Shown here: positions 30,284 through 64,000 of the stretch, in pieces
Numbering within the stretch: position 1 is the first letter of the stretch
How the letters are laid out: each line of letters begins with the position of its first letter
Assembly (NCBI RefSeq): GCF_001640025.1
Contig: NC_031674.1
Span: forward strand, 3,968,001 to 4,032,000
DNA length: 64,000 nucleotides
Direction of reading: 5' to 3'
From: Sugiyamaella lignohabitans
Taxonomy: Eukaryota; Ascomycota; Dipodascomycetes; Dipodascales; Trichomonascaceae
Translations under genes and position numbers: made by a program
The notes under the pieces: generated by a model
The model's database searches: none
The model's input: only the letters and a program-made list of their open reading frames with translations
Told to the model about the DNA's origin: nothing

Positions 30284-31324
30284 ATGATTATTGTTATTGG
30301 TTCAGGAGTTGTGGGCCTCTCAACAGCCGTCGTATTGGCTGGGAAAGGATATCGAGTGCTTGTTATTGCTGACTGGTTTCCAGGTGATCCTGAAGTCGCA
30401 AAATATGCATCTCCATGGGCCGGTGCCCATTTCCGCCCGTTTCCCTCATTCTCAGCTCAAGATTTAGTGGAAAAAGGCTATACTCGAGAGACCCTAGCTC
30501 ACTTTGAGACTCTCGCTGTAGCACACCCCGAATCTTCGATTAAGTTCATCCAGGGAGTGGAGTATATTGACTGTCCAACTAATAAGCATTTAAAGGGTGA
30601 AGGATATGAAGATATTCCACATTTCAAGTGTATCGATCCAAATTCCGAGGGCGTCCCCAATGGTACAAAATTTGCATGCTCTTATCGGACATGGGTTTTG
30701 GACCCTCCAAAGTATTTAGAATATCTCCATAGAAAGCTCCAATTTGAACAGGGAGTACGATTTTACAGAAAGCGCTTGGGGTCATTAAGGGAGGCATACG
30801 ATGTATGTCCTGGTTCAAAACTCATTGTAAATGCTACTGGAAAGGGTCTGCAATGGAATGGAGGTTATGATCCAGAATGCTTCAGTATAAGAGGGCAGAC
30901 GTTATTAGTAAGAGGACCTTACGAATGCCCACTGGCTGGAAAAACAATAACTCATCAACCATCTGATGGTAAATGGACTTTCGTAATTCCCCGGCCGCTC
31001 AATGGGGGTTATATCATCGGAGGCACTAAACAAGTTAAAGATGAATATCCTTCAGTCCGAGATATAGATACAGATGATCTTATCTCAAGAGCGAAAGTGC
31101 TGTTTCCAGAACTCTTGATTGACGGTTCGTTTGATATTCAAAAGATTAATGTTGGATTTCGACCTGCAAGGAATGGAGGCTTTCGACTTGAAAAAGAGAG
31201 TTTAGGTAACTCCACTATTATACATGCTTACGGTGCTGGCGGAATGGGATACGAGATGTCACATGGAATTGCCATGAGGATTGCGGAATTAATTCAGCTA
31301 AATGGTGTTCAAGGCAAGTTATAA
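30284..31324 (+). CDS. DAO1: FAD-dependent D-amino-acid (or D-aspartate) oxidase
   Basis: 346 residues. The FAD-binding fold opens at the N-terminus with IIVIGSGVVGLSTAVVLAGKG (GxGxxG; split IIVIGSGVVG and LSTAVVLAGKG). The family motif SPWAGAHFRPFPS follows at about 44-56. Near the end come NVGFRPARNGGFRLE and YGAGGMGYEMSHGIAM, holding the substrate-binding Arg and the flavin-contacting Gly-rich turn. It oxidises D-amino acids to 2-oxo acids with ammonia and hydrogen peroxide, normally in peroxisomes. The C-terminus is GKL, a weak relative of the SKL signal. D-aspartate oxidases share these motifs, so substrate range is open. It is convergent with an acyl-CoA oxidase, also a peroxisomal peroxide producer. 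Confidence 0.9.
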   Translation: MIIVIGSGVVGLSTAVVLAGKGYRVLVIADWFPGDPEVAKYASPWAGAHFRPFPSFSAQDLVEKGYTRETLAHFETLAVAHPESSIKFIQGVEYIDCPTNKHLKGEGYEDIPHFKCIDPNSEGVPNGTKFACSYRTWVLDPPKYLEYLHRKLQFEQGVRFYRKRLGSLREAYDVCPGSKLIVNATGKGLQWNGGYDPECFSIRGQTLLVRGPYECPLAGKTITHQPSDGKWTFVIPRPLNGGYIIGGTKQVKDEYPSVRDIDTDDLISRAKVLFPELLIDGSFDIQKINVGFRPARNGGFRLEKESLGNSTIIHAYGAGGMGYEMSHGIAMRIAELIQLNGVQGKL

Positions 31325-31359
31325 TTATTAAAATTTACGTTATGTCATATATAGATGTC

Positions 31360-33438
31360 TTACTCCAATTCCGACCGGTCGATAGGTGAATCCTCCTTTC
31401 TGAAAAGGAAAGGTTTAATGAGCTGATCATGATATGGTGCCTTGAAATTCTTTCTCGGATTGTTCCTTCTTGTGACCTTAGAAAAATAATTCTTATAAAC
31501 ATCACCATCATAATTTCCAATAGGCGAGTTGATCATGAAGTCACTGAGGTTGAAGGCATCAGTCAAACCGATTGCTTGTTCCCGTACACGCTTGCAATAA
31601 GAATCAACATGATCAGTGATTTGATCCAATTGATCAGATGTAATGAATCCATACTTCAAGAAAGCGCCCTCTTTCTCAATGGACCATAGAGAAAATAACC
31701 TGGCCAAATCAGAAAGGACATCAATGATGCTACCATCAGTACCATCATCCTTTGCCTTCTGAATTCTGTTAATAAATGCCCGAACAAAGAAATATCTAGT
31801 ATTGATACGAGCAATTTCAAAGCGGTGTTGAGATAACTCTTCAAATGCTTGAGTGGGGTTGAGGGACTTGGTCAATTCTCGATATAGTGCAACCGCATGA
31901 TTGATCGCTTGAGAAGATACAGACTCCCATGCTTCAAGAATTACATCAAAGTCCCGAATATCACGTCTACCAAGTGATTTACAACGTACTGGCAGAGTTT
32001 TCTTCAGTCCCTTTTGGATCAACGCTCTGCCATTAGATAAACAGAGAACATTGTTGTCACCTTCCCAAGTACAGTTCACTGCCCAATCACCGTATCCTTG
32101 GCCAAATCCATTGTAAGCACTGTAACCGTGGCCACCGCACGCCTGTCTACACTCGTCAATTATTTCCGAAGTAGCCCAGGTTGAGAATGCTTTGATTCCC
32201 GCTGATTGGGCGAACAGATCCTTCAAATCAGCTAATACCGAGCTCAAAGTAGCCTTATCAGAACTTGTTTGCAGGTTGTCTAGTTTACTTGTGGTAGAGT
32301 ATTGAAGGTCAAGGAGCTCATCAACACCAGCCTTCATAGCATATAAGTAAGCAAGTCGTGGTAGCAGTCGTCTTTGGTGATGCGTGTAATCCAAAATCTT
32401 CGATTCAGGGGCGTGGGGATCTGATCCAAACTGTCTCCGAGCTGCTGCATATCGAATGGCAATTGTGATAAACCTTTTTCCCACACTGAAAGAGTCTAAG
32501 GAAATGTTAACACGACCTATTATAAGAGGGCCGTATGCCAATTGTGCCATTGGGGGCTCAGTGACCTTACCGTTGCGGTCGACTTTGGCGTACCTCATGA
32601 GCATAAAGGTACGCGGAATACGGACATTTGAGAACTGGATCCAACCATTATCAACGCCATCTCTACCCATCTTCTTGCCGATATCTCCCAGAGCAATACC
32701 CTGTTTGAGACTATGGTCATGAACATTGCGCAAAGGAACTACAAAGTTTTTGACACCGTAATCTTTTCCATCAACAATTAATCTCGCAAATACAAGCGCA
32801 TGGGTGGCAGTATGAGCAGCACCACCGATCCACCATTTACAAGCACCTGAATGAGGAGTGTTGATAATGAACTCATCAGTTTGACGGTCAAATGTTGCAG
32901 TAGTCTCTAAACCAGCGACATTGGAACCGTGACCCAGCTCAGTCATCGCAAAACATCCATAGAATTTCTTAGCATTGCTAGCGCCCTTCGATTCCCAGTA
33001 TGAGATTTGCGCGTCAGTGCCTGATCCTCGGATACCATTCATAAATAGGCCCAGGTAAATTCTGATTCTAGTCAGTGCGCTTTGACTAACCAAGGACACA
33101 ATTGACATTCTTCGGGCAATTTCTTGAACATCACCGCTCACCTGGAAGGTATATTCTGCCACTTTCGCAACATGCTTCATCGTCACCTCACGAGCCTTCT
33201 CGAGAGGCAAGTCATAGCTATCATCATTTGAGAAAGTAGGATCTCGCTCGATGGTGGTTGCAAATGACTCCAGCTTTTCAGTGATCTCTTTACCGCCGTC
33301 CAAAAAGTATGTTAGTTGTCGGACATCAAACTTGGTTTTAGCACGCTCTCCAGCCAAAGCAACTGATGGCTCTGTGTAGGTGTTGTAATCTTTTCCATTA
33401 ATCGTCACATTGGACGTCAGGTTCGGTTGGAGAGCCAT
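31360..33438 (-). CDS. POX1: peroxisomal acyl-CoA oxidase
   Basis: 692 residues, typical for yeast acyl-CoA oxidases. The flavin-binding signature is GCFAMTELGHGSNVAGLETTA (split GCFAMTELGHG and SNVAGLETTA), followed by WWIGGAAHTATHALVFARL and RQFGS. The catalytic Glu sits in the C-terminal domain motif CTWEGDNNVLCLSNGRAL, and ACGGHGYSAYNGF is also present. It performs the first step of beta-oxidation, converting acyl-CoA to trans-2-enoyl-CoA and making hydrogen peroxide. The C-terminus (DRSELE) has no SKL signal, as in other yeast Pox proteins that use a Pex5 site elsewhere. Chain-length preference cannot be read. Confidence 0.95.
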   Translation of the reverse strand: MALQPNLTSNVTINGKDYNTYTEPSVALAGERAKTKFDVRQLTYFLDGGKEITEKLESFATTIERDPTFSNDDSYDLPLEKAREVTMKHVAKVAEYTFQVSGDVQEIARRMSIVSLVSQSALTRIRIYLGLFMNGIRGSGTDAQISYWESKGASNAKKFYGCFAMTELGHGSNVAGLETTATFDRQTDEFIINTPHSGACKWWIGGAAHTATHALVFARLIVDGKDYGVKNFVVPLRNVHDHSLKQGIALGDIGKKMGRDGVDNGWIQFSNVRIPRTFMLMRYAKVDRNGKVTEPPMAQLAYGPLIIGRVNISLDSFSVGKRFITIAIRYAAARRQFGSDPHAPESKILDYTHHQRRLLPRLAYLYAMKAGVDELLDLQYSTTSKLDNLQTSSDKATLSSVLADLKDLFAQSAGIKAFSTWATSEIIDECRQACGGHGYSAYNGFGQGYGDWAVNCTWEGDNNVLCLSNGRALIQKGLKKTLPVRCKSLGRRDIRDFDVILEAWESVSSQAINHAVALYRELTKSLNPTQAFEELSQHRFEIARINTRYFFVRAFINRIQKAKDDGTDGSIIDVLSDLARLFSLWSIEKEGAFLKYGFITSDQLDQITDHVDSYCKRVREQAIGLTDAFNLSDFMINSPIGNYDGDVYKNYFSKVTRRNNPRKNFKAPYHDQLIKPFLFRKEDSPIDRSELE

Positions 33439-55201: not shown

Positions 55202-55599
55202 ACTGTTTGTTCGTAATAAAACCTGTTACTGTGCTAGTGTTCTATCAGATCGCTTTTTTTCAGATTTAAGGTCTAATTTGTAAAAGTGAGTGCAGTCATC
55301 TCAGCCTTTCCATGAATATTGATGTTAGGGCATGTTTTGCGGCTCAAGTGGCGGTGATTGCTCACCTCAGCTTATGTTCGCTTCGCGTATGCATGGACGT
55401 TCTGCAGCTGACGCGATCTAATGTTGACTCTCGATATGAAGCACTAATAAGATTAATGAAAAAATTAATCAATGTAGATATAAAATTCATCTCAATGTTC
55501 TGTTGCTATTTAGCTCAAATATGTTATAAATGTGATGGAGATTCGTACACTTTGCTCATTGCGACTGACGATATCATAAGTATCTGAATCAAAGATTAC

Positions 55600-56939
55600 A
55601 AGGGCCACCCAACCTGAGGATTTCCCAGGCTTAACACCTGAGACAAATAGCAGGTCAATCTGCTCCATGCTCAACCCTTTAGTTTCATGTACGACGAAGT
55701 AGACGAAAATTATTGCGAATAAGTTGCAGCCTGCGAAAACAAGTCCGTAGTAAAAATGTATGGCACTAGTGATAAATGGGGTAACGAATGAAGAACGTTA
55801 GCTAACCAGTTGGCACCAAGTCCAAGAGACATGCCCTTTGATCTAGTTCTGGTGGGAAACAATTCGCTAACAAGAACGAATGCACAAGGAGCCCAAGTTG
55901 TAACAAAACAGAAGATATAACCGCAAGTGACAAATACCACTGCTCTTCCTACTTTTACATCGGCATCATTAGCATACCGTTGGCATATAGAGCCTTGGCA
56001 CCCATGGAACCATAGATGAGAAAGAATACAAACATACCACCATCTCCATATAGTGGCACATTCCGTCGACCGAATCTTTCTACAACGTATAAACCAAAGA
56101 AAGTCGAGGCGAAATTAACGACACCAAAAATGATAGATGCCAGAAATTGAATTGTGCATACCGATGCCTATGAAAATAGTGGTTCCAAAATAACAAAACT
56201 AGATTGCTCCTACAAGTTGTTGCAATGCATGAACAACTATACCGACCATAAGTCTATAACCGATTCGAGGCTTTCCTGTGATGACCTCTGACCACTTAGC
56301 TCTGCCAGATTGTCTCTCATGTTCAATAGCAGCAGCAACGTATTTGTAGAGTAGCGCTCTACGTAGCCGGTGAAGATACCGAGGGTAATCATTAATTGGT
56401 AGGAAGACACCAAAGTACCGCGAATTTCTTGAGGGGCTACTTCTGATTGAAACATTGGAACCAAGACTGCGATTGTACTCACACCCAAACCTCCATTTAA
56501 ACGCCCAATCATAAATTGATACCAAGTATTGGTAGTAGTGACCTGTATGAGAACGCCAACAATATAAATGACTGTTCCAACCCATATGCCGATTTTCCTA
56601 CCGTACATATCACCCAATCGAGAAAGATACCACCAATAGAGGCACCAATAGAGAAGATACCTATTAGCATTCCAGAACGAGCCTTAGACAAATAGTGTTA
56701 ACCAGATTCATCAGAGCTGCCTAATTTCTCGAGGAAACGGGCATATTAACATAAGCTAAAATCGTTCCTGTGTCATAGCCGCCAAAGATAAGACCTCCCA
56801 TTGCAGCAAATATACATAGGGTAGAGACGAGCAAATAACTTGACTTGGATGGTGAAGCACCTTTTCTTATGGTGGAAGCTTGAGTGACATCGTCACTTTC
56901 CGGATGTTCTTTTAAAGAAGGCAGTGAATCGGAACTCAT
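55600..56939 (-). pseudogene. degenerate major-facilitator hexose-transporter-like gene
   Basis: Fragments of one MFS sugar transporter lie in order on the minus strand but in different frames. The N-terminus (56721-56939) has GGLIFGGYDTGT. Next comes SKARSGMLIGIFSIGASIGG, then DMYGRKIGIWVGTVIYIVG and MIGRLNGGLGVSTIAVLVPM (56240-56620). Then come WAPCAFVLVSELFPTRTRSKG (55710-55940) and the C-terminal HETKGLSMEQIDLLF near 55640. Several frameshifts and small deletions separate them, and total length (about 1.34 kb) is short of an intact gene (about 1.6 kb). The gene is a clear relic. It lies beside an intact sugar-acid dehydratase, so it may have been the uptake gene of the cluster; substrate unknown. 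Confidence 0.85.
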
Positions 56940-58150
56940 TGTAATACTTGTGAAATGTGCTTCTAATTGATTATTTGTCCTATGATGACAATTGAGAGCA
57001 CTCTGTACAGATTTGCCCTCATTTTATGGTTCTGGAAGCGATTTGTTGTATGTAACGTTTCCATGGAATGGAATCATACTAGTCTTCTCGTGGGGTTCCG
57101 ATGGGAATAATAATATGTGTATGCTGCCCCTGCAGCAGCGTTGAAGATGTATGCAAGGAACAAGCAGATGTCGAGGATTTTCACAGATACAGCAAATAAT
57201 TGCCCCATGTGGTTGGCTTCTCTGCATGGTCTCGGACACTCTACCGATTTCAACTAGGATCCAGTAAGGATGTGCAACTCAGTTGTCACAAAGGGACAGT
57301 CTGTTGATAGGCTGAGGAGAGATAGTAATTCCTGTCTAAAAGTTACTTGATAGCTGTAAATAATTGTGACTTTTCCGATGGTATCTTAGTAACTTCAACT
57401 GTTTTTCTACTTTAAGTTCCTTCAATTTCCCGTTGGACTTAGTTAGTGATCTTGACCTTGTACATGATGTGCAATTTTTTTTCGGAGAACGGGAGCCGGC
57501 CGGGAGTAAAATGCCTGATTCTGCCAAGTAGATACTGTCATACTGACAGCTAAAGAGAGGATCGGTTTGGGGAAACTAACTATCCAGAGCAAACCGGCCT
57601 AACTGGATCTGGACCCGGTAGTCAGGGAACCCCTCCTCTGGGTTATAGCATGAGATGACTGATACTCTCAGAATAATGTCGTTAATCCTTTACATGAGAT
57701 ATAGACAAAGTCTCTTAGTAGACAAGAACTAAGCAGGGCCTGTGACCGACCCTGCCCATTGGAAGAAGCGTTCTTGAAAGCTTAAAAATGTCCTCCCGGG
57801 AACAGCACCAACCCTGGAAAAGAGCGGCATCATATATCCATGATATGCCGGACCGTATGGAAAATCCCCCACCGGAAATCACCCTTGATAATACTCGTTA
57901 TTTGAGTCTTGGAACCCAGGGCAGTATGGCATTCGGTTATTTACGTGCAACGGAAGTCCTGTGCATTATGCACTATTCGGCAATTACAGGCTATTTATGT
58001 TCAATTGGATCCCCGCATTTCAACCACTCAGGGGGTGATCCCCCCACGCGCCCCCACATACAGATGTTATCAAACACTATATTAAGCTGAGTTCGAGTTC
58101 AACTGTGAACAAAAGTAAGAGCTAATATCTCCTTGACAAAATAATTCAAT
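56940..58150. other. 1.2-kb region upstream of the galactonate-dehydratase gene
   Basis: It contains an inverted repeat GCAGGG-N11-CCCTGC (57733-57755) and CCGGCCGG at 57496-57503 (a Zn2Cys6-like CGG pair). It also contains a strong C-rich motif cluster at 58031-58060. Minus-strand frames near 57060-57240 read like a membrane-protein tail (KILDICLFLAYIFNAAAGAAY) and may be another relic. ORF 57788-58090 has no domain. Confidence 0.45.
58031..58060. promoter_or_regulatory. CCCCCAC motif cluster in the dehydratase promoter
   Basis: GGGGGTGATCCCCCCAC is followed by CGCGCCCCCACATA, so three CCCCCAC/GGGGGTG cores lie within 30 bp, about 100 bp upstream of the ATG. Confidence 0.55.
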
Positions 58151-59408
58151 ATGCCATCTCCTCTTGAAACTGACACCCGTAAGGGTTTATCTGCTGAGGC
58201 CAACCAGTCCAACAAAATTACAAAAATCGAGACATTCAGGGTCCCACCCCGCTGGTTGTTTATTCGAGTCGAAACTGAACAAGGCATCGTGGGATGGGGT
58301 GAAGCAACCTTAGAGGGCCATGGAGAAGCTGTTGAGGGCGCTATTGAGGACTTCAAGGAACGTTTTATTGGCTGGGAAGCGTCGAACATTGAAGATATTT
58401 GTAAGTGTTCTTATTATCTTAACCCATTATAATTGAAACTAACTGTAGCAAGACCAATCCGCCTACCGTCATAGATTCTACCGTGGAGGTGAAGTTTTAA
58501 TGTCTGCTATCTCGGGTCTTGATATTGCATTGTGGGACATTAAAGGCAAACAACTTGGAGTTCCTGTTTATACACTCCTGGGAGGAAAAGTTAGAGAAAA
58601 AGTCTCCGTATATGGTTGGATTGGTGGAGACCGTCCTAGTGATGTCTTGGAGCAAGCTAAGGAAAGAAAAGCTCAAGGATTTACCAAGGTAAAGATGAAT
58701 GCTATCGAATCTATCGGTTGGTTAGATTCCCCTGATCTGCTAGATGCTACGGTCGAAAGAGTGAAGCAAGTCCGTTCAATTGGGCTTGACGTTGGTTTGG
58801 ATTTTCATGGACGACTTCATAAGGCCATGGCCAAGCAGCTTGCAAGTAAACTTGCCCCTTATGGACCACTCTTCATCGAAGAGCCGTTACTCCCAGGGCA
58901 TGTTGACGAGCTGAAGACTTTATATCAGCAGACAACTATTCCAATTGCCCTCGGAGAAAGACTCTTTACTAGGTTGGATGTCAAGAAGTACTTTGAGAGT
59001 GGATGCATTGACATTATTCAACCTGATATTTCCCATGCTGGTGGTATTTCGGAGACTAGAAAGATTGCGATCATGGCTGAAGCATATGACATCGCCGTTG
59101 CCCCGCATTGTCCACTGGGACCACTTGCCTTTGCAGCAAGTCTGCAAATTGCACTCTCTTCACCTAACTTCGTTGTTTGCGAAATGTCCTGGAAGATGCA
59201 CTACAACCAGGGACACGATCTACTATCATACGTGAAAAATAAGGAGGCATTCAAGGTTTCTGAGGGCATGATCGATGCTTTGACTACCCCTGGATTGGGT
59301 GTCGAGATTGATGAAGATCTGGTTAGACAAGCTGCCAAAGAAAACGGAAACTTCTCTTGGAGAAACCCCGTCTGGAGAGGTCCTGATGGTGCCATTAGAG
59401 AGTGGTAG
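58151..59408 (+). CDS. D-galactonate dehydratase-like enolase-superfamily enzyme, two exons
   Basis: Exon 1 is 58151-58400 and exon 2 is 58453-59408, giving 401 residues. The intron starts GTAAGT and ends AACTAAC-N6-AAG; the nearer TAG is only 5 nt past the branch and would give an immediate stop. The protein matches the E. coli DgoD layout closely: ITKIETFRVPPRWLFIRVET, MSAISGLDIALWDIKGK, the metal site GLDFHGR, FIEEPLLPGH and ALGERLFTR, then SHAGGI and APHCPLGPLA (His about 301). It dehydrates D-galactonate to 2-keto-3-deoxygalactonate. Fungal homologues serve oxidative galactose breakdown. Other aldonic acids are possible. Bacterial ancestry is plausible but untested. Confidence 0.88.
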
Positions 59409-59601
59409 AAAAAGACTATGTAATCAATAAACCTTGCTTTATAAACATTCAGCTCTAATGATTTTCATGTTCGGTGAGCTCATTCGAGATATAACTAATT
59501 CCCTATCCTGACCAAATACATATCTGAGATATTAGCTGCCTGCTAGAAATCCGCTCATACTAAAAATGCGTCGAAATCAATTTTGAACTACATCTGTATA
59601 T

Positions 59602-60729
59602 TTAAAGTTTTGAATATCTAGGACCAAAGCGAACGATGGATTTACGACTTATATCAGCTACAGATGGCGTACCCGCAAGACCCATGGTAATGCTGAGATC
59701 TTTGATAAGGATTTCGAGCATTTTTTCGACACCTTTTTGGCCATTGCAAGCCAATCCCCATAGGGCAGGTCTACCAACCCAGACAAAATCAGCCCCAATA
59801 GCCAATGCTTTAAAAATATCTGCACCAGTTCGGACGCCGCCATCCAAGTGGACGGGAACACGGCCCTTCACAGCGTCCACAACATCTTGCAGTGCCTCAA
59901 TTGTAGGGAGGGTCTCATCCAACTGTCTACCACCATGATTGGAGACCCAAATGCCATCAATTCCAGCATCAATTGCCAGTTGGGCATCTTCACCACAGAT
60001 GATTCCCTTAGCCCAAATCTGCATGTTTGTAATAGACTTCAACCAAGGAATGGTTTCCGCCCAATTCAAACTAGGGTCAATAACATTACTAGCTGTCTGA
60101 GAATCACCTTTCTTTTGCTCCACGGGATGAGGAATTTTGATTTTATTGCCCTTTCCATCATCCAGATCTTCAAAATTTCCTAATCTAACGTTTCTAGGCA
60201 AACGGAAGTTATTGCGAGCATCAGCATATCTTTGACCAAGGTAAGGAGTATCAGAGGTCAACAGAATAGCTTTGTATCCGGCCTGCTCCGCTCGACGGAC
60301 TAATTGCTCACTCACTTTGCGGTTCTTAAAGACATATAGCTGGAAAAATACCGCTGAATTTGGAGCAGCATCCTTCACTTCGGCACCAGAGTAGTTGGAA
60401 TAGCTACTCAAGCCAATGGGAACCTTGGTGTTTTCACATGCACCTGCTGTTGCCAATTCACCTCGTGGACTGGCAAGAGTATGGTGTGAACTTGGAGCAA
60501 CACCTATAGGAGCCCTGAATTTTTTACCAAATAGCTCGTTTTTGGGTGAAGTATCCAACCTAGAGACATCCACCATTGTTCTGCCAATGATTTTATATCT
60601 TGAGAATGCATTTCTATTCTCCTTTAACGTGGACAAATCACCCGCACCACTCTGCCAGAAATCAAACACTGATTTCTCTATCCTTTGGGATGCCTTCTTC
60701 TCGAGATCATCTAAAGTAAGCAGCTTCAT
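59602..60729 (-). CDS. FMN-dependent alpha-hydroxyacid oxidase with peroxisomal SKL ending
   Basis: 375 residues, the size of glycolate or lactate oxidases without a cytochrome b5 domain. FMN and catalytic motifs are present: PIGVAPSSHHTLASPRGELA, FFQLYVFKNRK, LTSDTPYLGQRYADARNNF, catalytic His in VSNHGGRQLDETLPT (about 263), LDGGVRTGADIFKAL and GRPALWGLAC. It oxidises a 2-hydroxyacid to a 2-oxoacid, making hydrogen peroxide. The protein ends RYSKL, a textbook PTS1 peroxisomal signal, which fits a peroxide producer. Substrate (glycolate, L-lactate or another hydroxyacid) cannot be read. It lies in the putative sugar-acid cluster and is divergent from a reductase. Confidence 0.9.
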   Translation of the reverse strand: MKLLTLDDLEKKASQRIEKSVFDFWQSGAGDLSTLKENRNAFSRYKIIGRTMVDVSRLDTSPKNELFGKKFRAPIGVAPSSHHTLASPRGELATAGACENTKVPIGLSSYSNYSGAEVKDAAPNSAVFFQLYVFKNRKVSEQLVRRAEQAGYKAILLTSDTPYLGQRYADARNNFRLPRNVRLGNFEDLDDGKGNKIKIPHPVEQKKGDSQTASNVIDPSLNWAETIPWLKSITNMQIWAKGIICGEDAQLAIDAGIDGIWVSNHGGRQLDETLPTIEALQDVVDAVKGRVPVHLDGGVRTGADIFKALAIGADFVWVGRPALWGLACNGQKGVEKMLEILIKDLSITMGLAGTPSVADISRKSIVRFGPRYSKL

Positions 60730-61108
60730 AATAATGGAAGTATTTGATTTCTAATGCAACGAGGCCCAACGAAGTATCCACCTGATATGATTGCCAATGT
60801 GATGAATATAAAATGGCTAGTTCCAGCTTTTTTTTATTCTTATATACAGTAATAATTTCACCCCACACTGGCCCCCATGTCGTGATCCTTGATAACAGCT
60901 GATACGGGGATTTGACGGTAAAACGCGGTAATATGGAAAGACGTTGGATCGGCGAATGGCGGGGAGCTGTGTGGGGGTGTTCCGTGAGATGCCAGGTTAG
61001 ATCGTTATCACCCCCACACTTCTGACCGGTTTATATTGACATACAAAGCCTAATTGAGGGATGATGTATATTAAGAAATTTATTTGAAGTTTGATAGTAA
61101 GCTAAAAA
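60730..61108. promoter_or_regulatory. shared divergent promoter of oxidase and reductase with three C-rich motifs
   Basis: 379 bp with CACCCCACACT (60859-60869), its near-complement GTGTGGGGGTG (60969-60979) and CACCCCCACACT (61009-61020). The last two are inverted copies sharing an 11-bp CACCCCCACAC. The same CCCCCAC core occurs before the dehydratase gene, suggesting one shared regulator for the cluster. Confidence 0.6.
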
Positions 61109-62272
61109 ATGGTTCAGGACATTAAAAGAGTTTTGATTTATGGACTTGGAGCGTAAGTATTGGTGCTCGCGAAGGAGCTGGGAACATTGTTTATCTCAAC
61201 CTGGCATGTATGTGAAAATCATAGTTAGACTCTAACAATATACCAGCATCGGTGGTTATTACGCATTCATCTTGCACAATAGCAAGGAGGCAAATGTCTC
61301 CGTTATTGGTAGATCTAATTACGAAGCAGTCAAAAAGAATGTGAGTTTCTGTAACATCATCTCAAGAATACGTAGGATATGGTTTTCAGATCAAGTCCGT
61401 GATTCGGATATGTACTAACTATGCTGCAGGGATTGGTCTTGAATTCAATTCACTTTGGAGATGTTACATTTAGACCCGATGGCGTATACAAGTCTCCCAT
61501 GGAGGCCAGTGAGCATGAAATCTATGATTATGTCATTTGTACCAATAAGGCATTGGATCCATCTGCCCTGCCGGGAACTTTAGCTCCAGTAGTGACACCT
61601 GAGGTGACGACAATAGTCCTAATTCAGAATGGTGTTGGCTCAGAGATTTATTTAACAGAGGCTTTCTCAAAGAATACTGTCATCACTTGTGTTACTTGGG
61701 TTGGTGCAAAGCAAGACTCGCCTGGTGTTATTGAGCATAATAACGGAGATCAGATTACAATGGGTGTGGCCTGGAACAAAAACTTGGACAGGATTGTTGA
61801 AGAAAAGAAGGTTGAGACCTTTGCCACCATCTTGCGAAATGGTGGAACGGGTGTTCAAGTTGATGATGACATTATTGCTCGAAGATGGGAAAAGGTTGTT
61901 TGGAATGCTGCCTGGAACTCGTTCACAGCCTTGACAATGCTAAATACGCAACAGTTCCTAAATTCAAGTGAAGAAGCTATTGTCATCAGCAGAAGATTGA
62001 TGACCGAGATCATTGATGTAGCCAAGGCTCAAGGAATAGGGCTTGAGTACAAACTTGTTGACGAACTTATTGACAAGACTTTGAAGTCTCATGGCCTTGT
62101 ATCAAGTATGATGATGGACCTAAAGAACAACAGACCTATGGAAGTTGAGGGTATTTTAGGTAACCCAATGCGTGCCGCAAGAAAGTTTGGTGTTGCTACT
62201 CCGACTTTAGATCTTGCTTATGTATTGGTAAAGGCTCAAAACTGGAGAGTTACCAACCCATCTAAAGTGTAG
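61109..62272 (+). CDS. ketopantoate reductase (PanE/ApbA)-like NADPH reductase, three exons
   Basis: Exons 61109-61152, 61247-61340 and 61430-62272 give 326 residues. Introns start GTAAGT and GTGAGT and end CTCTAAC-N7-CAG and TACTAAC-N7-CAG; frames join exactly. The spliced N-terminus MVQDIKRVLIYGLGA-IGGYYA restores the dinucleotide fold (GxGxxG), then SVIGRSNYEAVKKN and NGVGSE. The C-terminal ApbA domain keeps RRWEKVVWNAAWN, whose Lys is catalytic, and ends MRAARKFGVATPTLDLAYVL. PanE reduces 2-dehydropantoate to pantoate, and relatives reduce other 2-oxoacids. Placement in the sugar-acid cluster makes a 2-oxoacid reductase role likely, but pantothenate synthesis is not excluded. Confidence 0.88.
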
Positions 62273-62465
62273 TTATATATAGTCAATAGCTTATGAACAA
62301 CATATATTTTGAATCGTCCAAGATTAAAGACATAGACATGAGGAGATTTTGGATTGCGGGATCTCAAAAGGGAGCTCAGTTTTACACCCGACGTGTGCAA
62401 GTTCATAAACTAATATACAATATCATAAATAGAGGCTAATAAATAATCTATACTATATGTGTAGG

Positions 62466-64000
62466 TTATAGGTCCAAGTTGAGCCAGTTTTCATTCACTT
62501 CCAGAGTTAATAGACTATTCAACTGATCAAGGTCATCGTCATTTAATTCAAAGTGAAACTCATTAGCAGTCTCATCAGGACCAAATCTCGTACTTGCTTC
62601 TTCAGGAGAATGTTTATGCTCTTCGTTGAAAGAAAGAAGCGAGTTCATGAGAAATTTCAACTGCTCAGATATCGGCGCACAGGGGTGATAGTAGTTTTGT
62701 CTTGAGGTATTGTTTTCGGTCCCGATAGTTTCCAGATTACGGATCAGCCTATCCAATAGACCGAGAGTTGCTGGCTGACTAGAAGACGAAATCGCACCCG
62801 TGAAGACGGCTTTGATCAGAAACACTGCTGCATAACTTATATATCCATAGAACCGATAGGGGAGATAGGACAATAAACCTGAGGGACTCAGTTCATTAAC
62901 ACAAATCGAAACAATTTTGGTGGCTGCTTTTATGGATTCAAGAATATATTTCGAGTCTGCCGTAGCTGTTACACCTCGAGGAAAGATGCTGGCAACAATA
63001 GGCACATCGCCATCAGCAGTAGGATTCATCTGCCTTGCCAGTCTGACCATAGCAATAGCCCTTCGAATATGAGCTTGGAAACCAAATGAATAAGCATACA
63101 GGGCCGAAAAGTGAAAACTCATCCAAACCATCTCATTGACAGGAGGAATTCTCCATTGGCGAGACTCCCAGGTAATTTCGAACTCGGAAAAAGTCCTGAT
63201 AAACTCGTCCAATAATCGACAATAGTCGCCTACCTCAGCAAGAGCAATAGTTCGATCTCTGCTGGGGTACAGTGAATCATGGACATTAGTAAGAATTTGT
63301 GTAACTTCAAGCATCACTTGAACGAATGCAGCATTTTCATCACCCAAAATTGAAGATGCAAGAGTTGGGAAGTTCATTATTGAGGTCTGACCAACAGGTA
63401 ATCCAAATCCAACTTGATTTTGAAAACAGATACCAGGACCCCGACTCCAAAAGGCCTTACCAGCACGAACGGATGTCTGTCTATCGAAAATATAACAATA
63501 GGTCCATGCCAGGCGTTGCCGATGAGTGTCTTCATCAGTGACTTCGGACACTGACAGCAGTGTTTTTTGATCAAACCCCATCAGGTAACTATTCCTGATA
63601 GCCAAGCCTACCAGATTCCAGGATAATCTCTCTTCGTATTTATGAATTTCTTCATCTTCAGTACTGACATCTGCATCGGTTATCAGTGGAAGATTGTCAC
63701 TAATCAGTAGTAATGCCTCAACGATTCCAGTGTTGGGTTTTCCTCCCCACACTAAAGAGCTTATCTCGAGTTGAAAGTATTTCCAGCATGCCTTATGAAT
63801 TAAGATAGACTCGTAGCGGGTGGCCACCACAACCATTGCACAAAGCAAAATGGGCTCTTTCAGAGCAAATTGGACAAGTTGCTGGTCATTTAACGGCATC
63901 TTTGATTCAGGAACAATGGGCATGAAGTGATGGTATCTGTTGAAAAACAAAGATACATAAGTTTTGAGCTCTGTGGGGCTCAAAATACCTACTCGAACAA
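62466..64000 (-). CDS. fungal Zn2Cys6-type transcription factor (N-terminus beyond right edge)
   Basis: The frame from 62466 stays open through the window edge (residues ...VRVGILSPTELKTYVSLFFN onward); about 511 codons are present. They form the fungal-specific transcription-factor domain (fungal_trans/MHR): FFNRYHHFMPIVPES, FALKEPILLCAMVVVATRY, WKYFQLEISSLVWGG and RLAWTYCYIFDRQTSVRAG. The Zn2Cys6 DNA-binding region should lie beyond 64000. The C-terminus is acidic (DETANEFHFELNDDDLDQL), as in activation domains. By position it is the likely regulator of the sugar-acid cluster; that is inference. Confidence 0.85.
   Translation of the reverse strand, partial: VRVGILSPTELKTYVSLFFNRYHHFMPIVPESKMPLNDQQLVQFALKEPILLCAMVVVATRYESILIHKACWKYFQLEISSLVWGGKPNTGIVEALLLISDNLPLITDADVSTEDEEIHKYEERLSWNLVGLAIRNSYLMGFDQKTLLSVSEVTDEDTHRQRLAWTYCYIFDRQTSVRAGKAFWSRGPGICFQNQVGFGLPVGQTSIMNFPTLASSILGDENAAFVQVMLEVTQILTNVHDSLYPSRDRTIALAEVGDYCRLLDEFIRTFSEFEITWESRQWRIPPVNEMVWMSFHFSALYAYSFGFQAHIRRAIAMVRLARQMNPTADGDVPIVASIFPRGVTATADSKYILESIKAATKIVSICVNELSPSGLLSYLPYRFYGYISYAAVFLIKAVFTGAISSSSQPATLGLLDRLIRNLETIGTENNTSRQNYYHPCAPISEQLKFLMNSLLSFNEEHKHSPEEASTRFGPDETANEFHFELNDDDLDQLNSLLTLEVNENWLNLDL

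What the first reader, a model, noticed from the sequence alone, without database searches (positions are those of the whole stretch)
55600..64000. Putative sugar-acid / hydroxyacid catabolic gene cluster
A sugar-transporter relic, a DgoD-like dehydratase, an SKL-tagged alpha-hydroxyacid oxidase, a PanE-like reductase and a fungal transcription factor are consecutive. The rest of the window is housekeeping yeast genes. DgoD makes a 2-keto-3-deoxy acid; the oxidase and reductase interconvert 2-hydroxy and 2-oxo acids in opposite directions, so a route handling aldonic or 2-oxoacid intermediates is plausible. I know of no described yeast pathway with exactly this set.
Basis: partly seen in the sequence, partly recalled or inferred. 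Interest (0 to 1): 0.75.

Follow-up and report, generated by a model that had tools for sequence, protein, structure and literature searches.

The report
Yeast sugar-acid and hydroxyacid gene cluster
At one end of this yeast genome window lie five intact neighbouring genes and one dead one that look like a switchable toolkit for eating an unusual sugar acid, probably D-galactonate, built from known kinds of enzymes in a combination I did not find described.

Summary
The dehydratase is a complete two-exon gene (401 aa) far above NCBI's galactonate-dehydratase cut-off (543.8 vs 311 bits). The oxidase is an intact, SKL-ended FMN 2-hydroxyacid oxidase. The PanE-like gene is intact with two introns. 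The regulator has a Zn2Cys6 finger. The transporter is a pseudogene. A KduD-like dehydrogenase past the window end is divergent to the regulator. The six genes form three divergent pairs. Their intergenic regions share TGTGGGGG, a CreA/Mig1-type word: 4 copies where 0.045 are expected genome-wide, but not significant after correction against a non-coding background. The oxidase/PanE pair probably recurs in an unnamed relative: both best matches lie on contigs of 4,997 bases. Synteny of the dehydratase with the rest is not shown: in 5 of 6 named yeasts the dehydratase and oxidase matches have different contig lengths. No aldolase or kinase is among the cluster's proteins. Fungal D-galactonate dehydratases are already known. 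Best reading: a glucose-repressed aldonate/2-hydroxyacid catabolic cluster, substrate unproven. New combination of known enzymes, moderate interest.

The parts
55573..56939 (-). Pseudogene of an MFS sugar transporter (relic)
   Evidence: 72-77% DNA identity to two intact paralogs at C2:576k (549-aa frame) and C2:3747k (575-aa frame); tblastn gives 5 pieces in 3 frames and a gap of about 70 aa
58151..59408 (+). Galactonate dehydratase-like gene (MR_MLE family), exons 58151-58400 and 58453-59408, 401 aa
   Evidence: NF010624 543.8 bits vs cut-off 311; PDB 3rr1 E 1.1e-129; intron model; catalytic motifs
59602..60729 (-). FMN-dependent 2-hydroxyacid oxidase, 375 aa, ends SKL (peroxisomal-type signal)
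   Evidence: PF01070 401.9 bits; best PDB relatives are lactate/glycolate/hydroxyacid oxidases
60730..61108 (.). Region between the divergent oxidase and PanE-like genes; CCCCCACA at 60970 (-) and 61011 (+)
61109..62272 (+). PanE/ApbA-family ketoacid reductase, exons 61109-61152, 61247-61340, 61430-62272, 326 aa
   Evidence: PF02558 and PF08546; TIGR00745 194.1 bits vs cut-off 141.35; splice model
62466..64000 (-). Zn2Cys6/Fungal_trans regulator; continues beyond the window to C2:4032688
   Evidence: PF00172 and PF04082; start from the frame
56941..58150 (.). 1.2-kb region upstream of the dehydratase; CCCCCACA at 58051 (+); single copy in the genome

Best explanation
This is a facultative, glucose-repressed catabolic gene cluster of a Trichomonascaceae-like yeast for an aldonic acid, most likely D-galactonate.

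Mechanism: the dehydratase removes water from the aldonate to give a 2-keto-3-deoxy acid (strong inference from family). The KduD-like SDR beyond the window edge oxidises or reduces that acid or a product of it (inferred). The peroxisomal-type oxidase and the PanE-like reductase form a second, tightly paired module acting on short (S)-2-hydroxy and 2-oxo acids released downstream (pairing supported, substrates inferred). The Zn2Cys6 protein is the pathway switch (inferred). CreA/Mig1-type words in all three divergent promoters keep the set off on glucose (words shown, binding and repression inferred). The neighbouring transporter has decayed; two intact paralogs remain elsewhere. Cleavage of the keto-deoxy acid must use an enzyme encoded elsewhere, for example one of the two DHDPS-family aldolases.
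For: The dehydratase passes a curated equivalog cut-off. Short motifs holding the expected metal ligands and acid/base residues are present, each kept in 113-119 of 119 listed relatives. Six genes lie consecutively as three divergent pairs, with a regulator. CCCCCACA occurs 4 times in the 2,072 bases between the pairs against 344 in 15.93 Mb, 0.045 expected. The same word lies upstream of an FBPase-like gene (L009:9140, ORF from 9307), an aldolase (L009:1246, ORF from 1488), a cytochrome-b2-type gene (L015:1348, ORF start 1262, minus strand), a GAPDH-like gene (L032:3028, ORF from 3242) and beside the other KduD-like gene (L011:5574) (gene names partly by eye). SYGGRG is the CreA motif (PMC3183063, passages). 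The best relatives of the oxidase (70%) and reductase (63%) both lie on contigs of length 4,997.
Against: No aldolase, kinase or lactonase is among the cluster's proteins (the sixth gene is the transporter relic). The genome's two DHDPS genes are about 0.18 and 1 Mb away; other aldolase families and sugar-acid kinases were not searched. Nearest named relatives differ: Lipomycetes and basidiomycetes for the dehydratase; Trichomonascaceae, then Geotrichum, Nadsonia and Lipomycetes for the oxidase; filamentous ascomycetes for PanE. The KduD-like gene misses its equivalog cut-off (314.6 vs 338.85). The promoter word was picked from all 8-mers: corrected value 0.005 on the genome-wide background, but 0.66 on a background of 81 kb of fetched non-coding DNA, which holds 6 copies outside the cluster (these loci were mostly fetched for their catabolic genes, so that background leans high). 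The reversed control word is commoner still, 680 copies, and SYGGRG itself is common. No expression or growth data were found.
Confidence: 0.42

Rival explanations
1. Two independent modules lie side by side by chance: a galactonate dehydratase gene, and an oxidase/PanE pair for short 2-hydroxy acids, with or without the regulator. They do not share a pathway.
For: Different nearest relatives for dehydratase, oxidase and PanE; apart from the window's own contig the dehydratase shares no contig length with PanE, and with the oxidase only the Dipodascopsis uninucleata scaffold. The shared promoter word is not significant on a non-coding background.
Against: Co-location of four such families is unlikely by random placement; the same word occurs in all three intergenic regions.
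Confidence: 0.33
2. The cluster is a catabolic unit, but its substrate is another acid, for example a uronate-derived acid from glucuronoxylan or a 2-hydroxy acid. The dehydratase family name misleads on the stereochemistry.
For: Fungal sugar-acid dehydratases can be promiscuous (GaaB is 10-fold more active on L-fuconate than on L-galactonate, PMC12370193 passages). KduD-type enzymes act on uronate-derived keto-deoxy acids (recalled; family name). The second KduD-like gene is divergent to a zinc-type dehydrogenase (by eye).
Against: The galactonate-dehydratase model outscores every other model matched by over 280 bits.
Confidence: 0.17
3. The cluster is decaying and no longer works as a pathway; the transporter relic is the first loss.
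For: Transporter pseudogene.
Against: The other five coding regions are intact; catalytic motifs were checked for the dehydratase and PanE-like protein.
Confidence: 0.08

Closest known systems
Fungal D-galactonate / non-phosphorylating De Ley-Doudoroff route (Aspergillus)
   Same: D-galactonate dehydratase step; A. niger enzyme expressed in Myceliophthora with build-up of the keto-deoxy product (PMC8113861 passages); route described for A. terreus (PMC11219438 passages)
   Different: The cluster has no galactose dehydrogenase, lactonase or aldolase; it adds a 2-hydroxyacid oxidase, a PanE-like reductase and a KduD-like SDR. The enzyme of the fungal aldolase step is called 'still elusive' in PMC9781776 (passages)
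A. niger gluD-gluE D-glucuronate cluster
   Same: Sugar-acid catabolic genes with a bidirectional promoter (PMC5306355 passages)
   Different: Reductase plus idonate dehydrogenase; no enolase-type dehydratase, oxidase or PanE protein in the passages read
Bacterial dgo operon, D-galactonate (recalled)
   Same: Dehydratase family
   Different: Kinase and phospho-aldolase are absent from the cluster here
Fungal ketoisovalerate reductase KivR, PanE family (PMC3478992)
   Same: PanE family with Glu-Asn-Lys active site (passages)
   Different: KivR serves depsipeptide synthesis and sits by a synthetase gene; none among the cluster proteins scanned here
Glycolate/hydroxyacid oxidases (PDB 1gox, human HAO1)
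   Same: FMN_dh domain over the full length; the SKL end is a usual peroxisomal signal (recalled)
   Different: Phe where spinach has Tyr24 and Tyr where it has Trp108 (alignment; numbering and roles recalled). Phe or Tyr at the second site is usual among the listed relatives (112 of 119)

Membership tests
D-galactonate dehydratase (DgoD type) | Passes curated equivalog model | tested here: met
   NF010624 543.8 vs cut-off 311; next model 258.5 vs cut-off 750
D-galactonate dehydratase (DgoD type) | Catalytic residues (Asp/His, Glu, Glu, Asp, His; roles recalled) | tested here: met
   Motifs LDFHG 199, IEEP 225, LGER 250, PDISH 274, PHCPLGP 301
D-galactonate dehydratase (DgoD type) | Activity on D-galactonate | not testable with these tools
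   needs the enzyme
FMN (S)-2-hydroxyacid oxidase | FMN_dh domain over full length | tested here: met
   PF01070 residues 13-365
FMN (S)-2-hydroxyacid oxidase | Peroxisomal C-terminus | tested here: met
   ends SKL; among the 120 listed proteins, own included, 21 end SKL and 29 SRL
L-lactate oxidase (equivalog) | TIGR02708 cut-off | tested here: not met
   237.2 vs 645.5
PanE/ApbA ketoacid reductase | Both domains and subfamily cut-off | tested here: met
   PF02558, PF08546; TIGR00745 194.1 vs 141.35
Housekeeping ketopantoate reductase | Needed for pantothenate synthesis | not testable with these tools
   Two other ApbA_C genes exist in the genome, only one of them detectably similar (30%)
KduD (2-keto-3-deoxygluconate 5-dehydrogenase) | TIGR01832 equivalog cut-off | tested here: not met
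   314.6 vs 338.85: KduD-like only
Fungal metabolic gene cluster | Consecutive metabolic genes with a regulator | tested here: met
   that they form one pathway is not shown
Fungal metabolic gene cluster | Conserved gene order in relatives | tested here: inconclusive
No fungal genome collection was on hand
Fungal metabolic gene cluster | Co-expression | not testable with these tools
   no RNA data
De Ley-Doudoroff pathway cluster | Keto-deoxy-galactonate aldolase (and kinase) in the cluster | tested here: not met
   No such domain among the cluster proteins; DHDPS-family genes only at C2:3.04 and 3.84 Mb. Other aldolase families and kinases were not searched genome-wide

The most novel reading that the evidence does not exclude
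The oxidase/PanE pair is a stereo-inverting module. The FMN oxidase turns an (S)-2-hydroxy acid into the 2-oxo acid, and the PanE-like NADPH reductase turns that into the (R)-2-hydroxy acid, for example L-glycerate to hydroxypyruvate to D-glycerate. It is coupled to a dehydratase plus KduD-like oxidation that bypasses the missing fungal keto-deoxy-galactonate aldolase. This would be a new fungal aldonate route.
Probability: 0.12. Interest if true: 0.6.

Novelty: new variant of a known kind. Interest (0 to 1): 0.35.

Why it matters
The enzyme that follows D-galactonate dehydration is described as still elusive for fungi (PMC9781776, passages). A cluster that puts a galactonate dehydratase beside a KduD-like dehydrogenase and a regulator names concrete candidates to test. 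It also gives a tractable yeast case of a sugar-acid cluster with a decayed transporter.

Tried and rejected
Considered a broken dehydratase: the obvious splice site (AG at 58448) shifts the frame. Rejected, because the next AG (58452) keeps it and restores residues found in close relatives. Considered recent bacterial transfer of the dehydratase. Not favoured: in a tree of 48 rows (47 of the 120 listed hits plus the window protein) it lies with Lipomycetes and two environmental proteins (99/94), apart from the bacteria and also apart from the Trichomonascus and Blastobotrys copies; transfer among fungi, or old paralogy with losses, both remain open. Considered the oxidase's Phe/Tyr changes as a specificity signal: dropped, as the second is usual among its relatives; my pattern for the first site failed in 109 of 119, so its frequency is not known. 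A Zn2Cys6-type CGG spacing common to all three promoters was not found; one spacing was in two of three. A peroxisomal signal on PanE is weak: SKV in 3 of the 120 listed (the window's own and two of its closest relatives), SKL in 3 others. The promoter word as proof of co-regulation: weakened, see the Against line; a first count of mine could not say where the background copies lie, and one search showed that all four cluster copies sit in frames of 100 aa or more that the mask hides and that six copies lie elsewhere in non-coding DNA. The genome-contig scan with the dehydratase found no relative; its patterns came from variable stretches, so it says nothing about bacteria, and one search lists bacterial relatives at 63-65%. 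Paper searches that gave nothing on the cluster.
Full report
What is there. The window is C2:3968001-4032000 of a 15.93-Mb, four-contig genome. Size and contig number fit the yeast Sugiyamaella lignohabitans; that name is my inference from memory and no call states it. From left to right the end of the window holds: an MFS transporter pseudogene (-), a dehydratase (+), an FMN oxidase (-), a PanE-like reductase (+) and a Zn2Cys6 regulator (-). Beyond the edge follows a KduD-like SDR (+). The next long frame after 2.3 kb is a C2H2 zinc-finger gene. No frame longer than 111 aa lies in the gap.

Gene models. The dehydratase has one 52-base intron ending at a CAAG acceptor. The upstream TGTAG acceptor breaks the frame; the chosen one restores IEDIYQSAYRHRFYRGG, which relatives P0001 and P0007 have. 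The PanE-like gene has two introns. The protein database's own entries for these loci, 302 and 283 aa, lack the first exons (P0013, P0121). The transporter relic matches residues 14-531 of an intact paralog in five pieces and three frames, with about 70 residues missing.

Identity of the proteins. The dehydratase matches the galactonate dehydratase equivalog at 543.8 bits (cut-off 311) and a putative D-galactonate dehydratase structure, 3rr1, along its length. The best named are Lipomycetes (mostly 77-78%), then basidiomycetes (up to 75%); Trichomonascus, Blastobotrys and Wickerhamomyces copies are at 67-69%, and at least four listed rows are bacteria (63-65%). The tree puts the window protein with the Lipomycetes, apart from the copies of the yeasts that I take to be its family (recalled taxonomy). 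The oxidase is closest to four unnamed proteins (62-70%); the best named are Trichomonascus (53-57%), Blastobotrys and Geotrichum (52-54%), Nadsonia (55%) and Lipomycetes (49-53%), apart from an odd 641-aa plant protein at 47% (also capped: 6,982 of 7,999 candidates matched). The PanE-like protein's named relatives among the 120 listed (of 333 found) are filamentous ascomycetes at 45-50%; seven unnamed ones reach 51-63%.

Conserved pairing. I compared the contig lengths of the listed hits (119 dehydratase, 120 PanE, 119 oxidase). Leaving out the window's own contig, PanE and oxidase share one length: 4,997 bases, their respective best hits P0122 and P0242. Dehydratase and oxidase share one, 861,323 (Dipodascopsis uninucleata). 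Dehydratase and PanE share none. Equal length is good but indirect evidence of the same contig; the contig could not be read, because no metagenome scan was allowed. For dehydratase and oxidase, five other yeasts named in both lists (Lipomyces tetrasporus, L. kononenkoae, Dipodascopsis tothii, Myxozyma melibiosi, Trichomonascus vanleenenianus) show different lengths. The lengths are those of the longest contig per protein cluster, so this is only a hint against close linkage.

Regulation. The genes form three divergent pairs. One 8-letter word, CCCCCACA (reverse TGTGGGGG), is common to all three intergenic regions and is the only such 8-mer: once before the dehydratase, twice between oxidase and PanE, once between regulator and KduD-like gene. 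It occurs 344 times in the genome (the reversed control word occurs 680 times), so 0.045 are expected in 2,072 bases. The Poisson chance of four is 1.6e-7, or 0.005 after multiplying by all 8-mers. Against a non-coding background the case is weaker: 81,383 bases of fetched DNA without frames of 100 aa or more hold 6 copies, none of them the cluster's, which gives 0.15 expected and 0.66 after correction. Most of those stretches outside the window were fetched for their catabolic genes, so this background leans high. The six copies lie upstream of FBPase-like, aldolase, cytochrome-b2-like and GAPDH-like genes, beside the second KduD-like gene, and at window 20054 (gene names partly by eye). Other copies lie in frames, one inside a dehydratase gene (L009:5124) and others not assigned (among them L005:3921, L012:2266, L029:3786, window 11641, L033:3147). 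The word fits the CreA motif SYGGRG (PMC3183063, passages), which the same paper calls fairly common. I take it as a probable carbon-catabolite site, not as the binding site of the cluster's own regulator and not as proof of co-regulation.

How it may work. Shown: intact genes, families, divergent arrangement and shared words. Inferred: dehydration of D-galactonate to 2-keto-3-deoxy-D-galactonate; KduD-like redox step; oxidase and PanE-like reductase working on released 2-hydroxy/2-oxo acids; regulator as switch; import by one of the intact transporter paralogs. Missing: an aldolase in the cluster. The genome has two DHDPS-family genes; other aldolase families were not searched. One DHDPS gene sits at C2:3844k beside a reductase, another MR_MLE dehydratase and a regulator, which looks like a separate sugar-acid cluster (names partly by eye).

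Against what is known. D-galactonate dehydratase in fungi is established (PMC8113861 and PMC11219438, passages; Motter et al. 2014 is cited there, not read). The enzyme of the fungal aldolase step is stated to be elusive in PMC9781776 (passages), although PMC8113861 used an A. niger gene as that aldolase; the passage I saw on its effect is cut off after 'Unfortunately'. I found no paper on this gene set (listings). In all, passages of eight papers were read, none in full. So the enzymes are known and the combination is new to me.

Verdict. A real, probably functional catabolic cluster with a well-assigned first enzyme and a plausible but unproven substrate. The oxidase/PanE pair looks like a conserved unit of its own; whether it belongs to the same pathway is the open point.

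Noticed in passing
L005:5279-7129 (C2:4036279-4038129): Next long frame after the cluster is a C2H2 protein whose two-finger region looks like Mig1/CreA (recalled). A search with its fingers finds no closer copy in the genome: the other places are at most 56% identical. A catabolite-repressor-like gene adjoins the cluster.
   Followed up: partly
L011 (C1:2024001-2034000): A second KduD-like gene (58.5% identical) is divergent to a zinc-type dehydrogenase, with the same CCCCCACA word between them.
   Followed up: partly
L009 (C2:3842501-3852500): What looks like another sugar-acid cluster: DHDPS-family aldolase, NAD-dependent reductase (by eye), MR_MLE dehydratase and a regulator (by eye), next to an FBPase-like gene.
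   Followed up: partly
L010 (C1:943001-953000): MR_MLE dehydratase beside an amidohydrolase-like gene, a glycoside-hydrolase-like gene, a MocA-like oxidoreductase and a regulator; looks like an L-rhamnose or L-fucose catabolic cluster (by eye).
   Followed up: no
window 58151-59408: The dehydratase groups with Lipomycetes, not with the copies of Trichomonascus and Blastobotrys: two separate dehydratase lineages in yeasts.
   Followed up: partly
window 30284-33438: A FAD-dependent oxidoreductase (DAO family) and an acyl-CoA oxidase are convergent neighbours 35 bases apart.
   Followed up: no
window 56941-58150: A 1.2-kb intergenic region, single copy in the genome, holding only a doubtful 100-aa frame that overlaps the shared promoter word.
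   Followed up: partly
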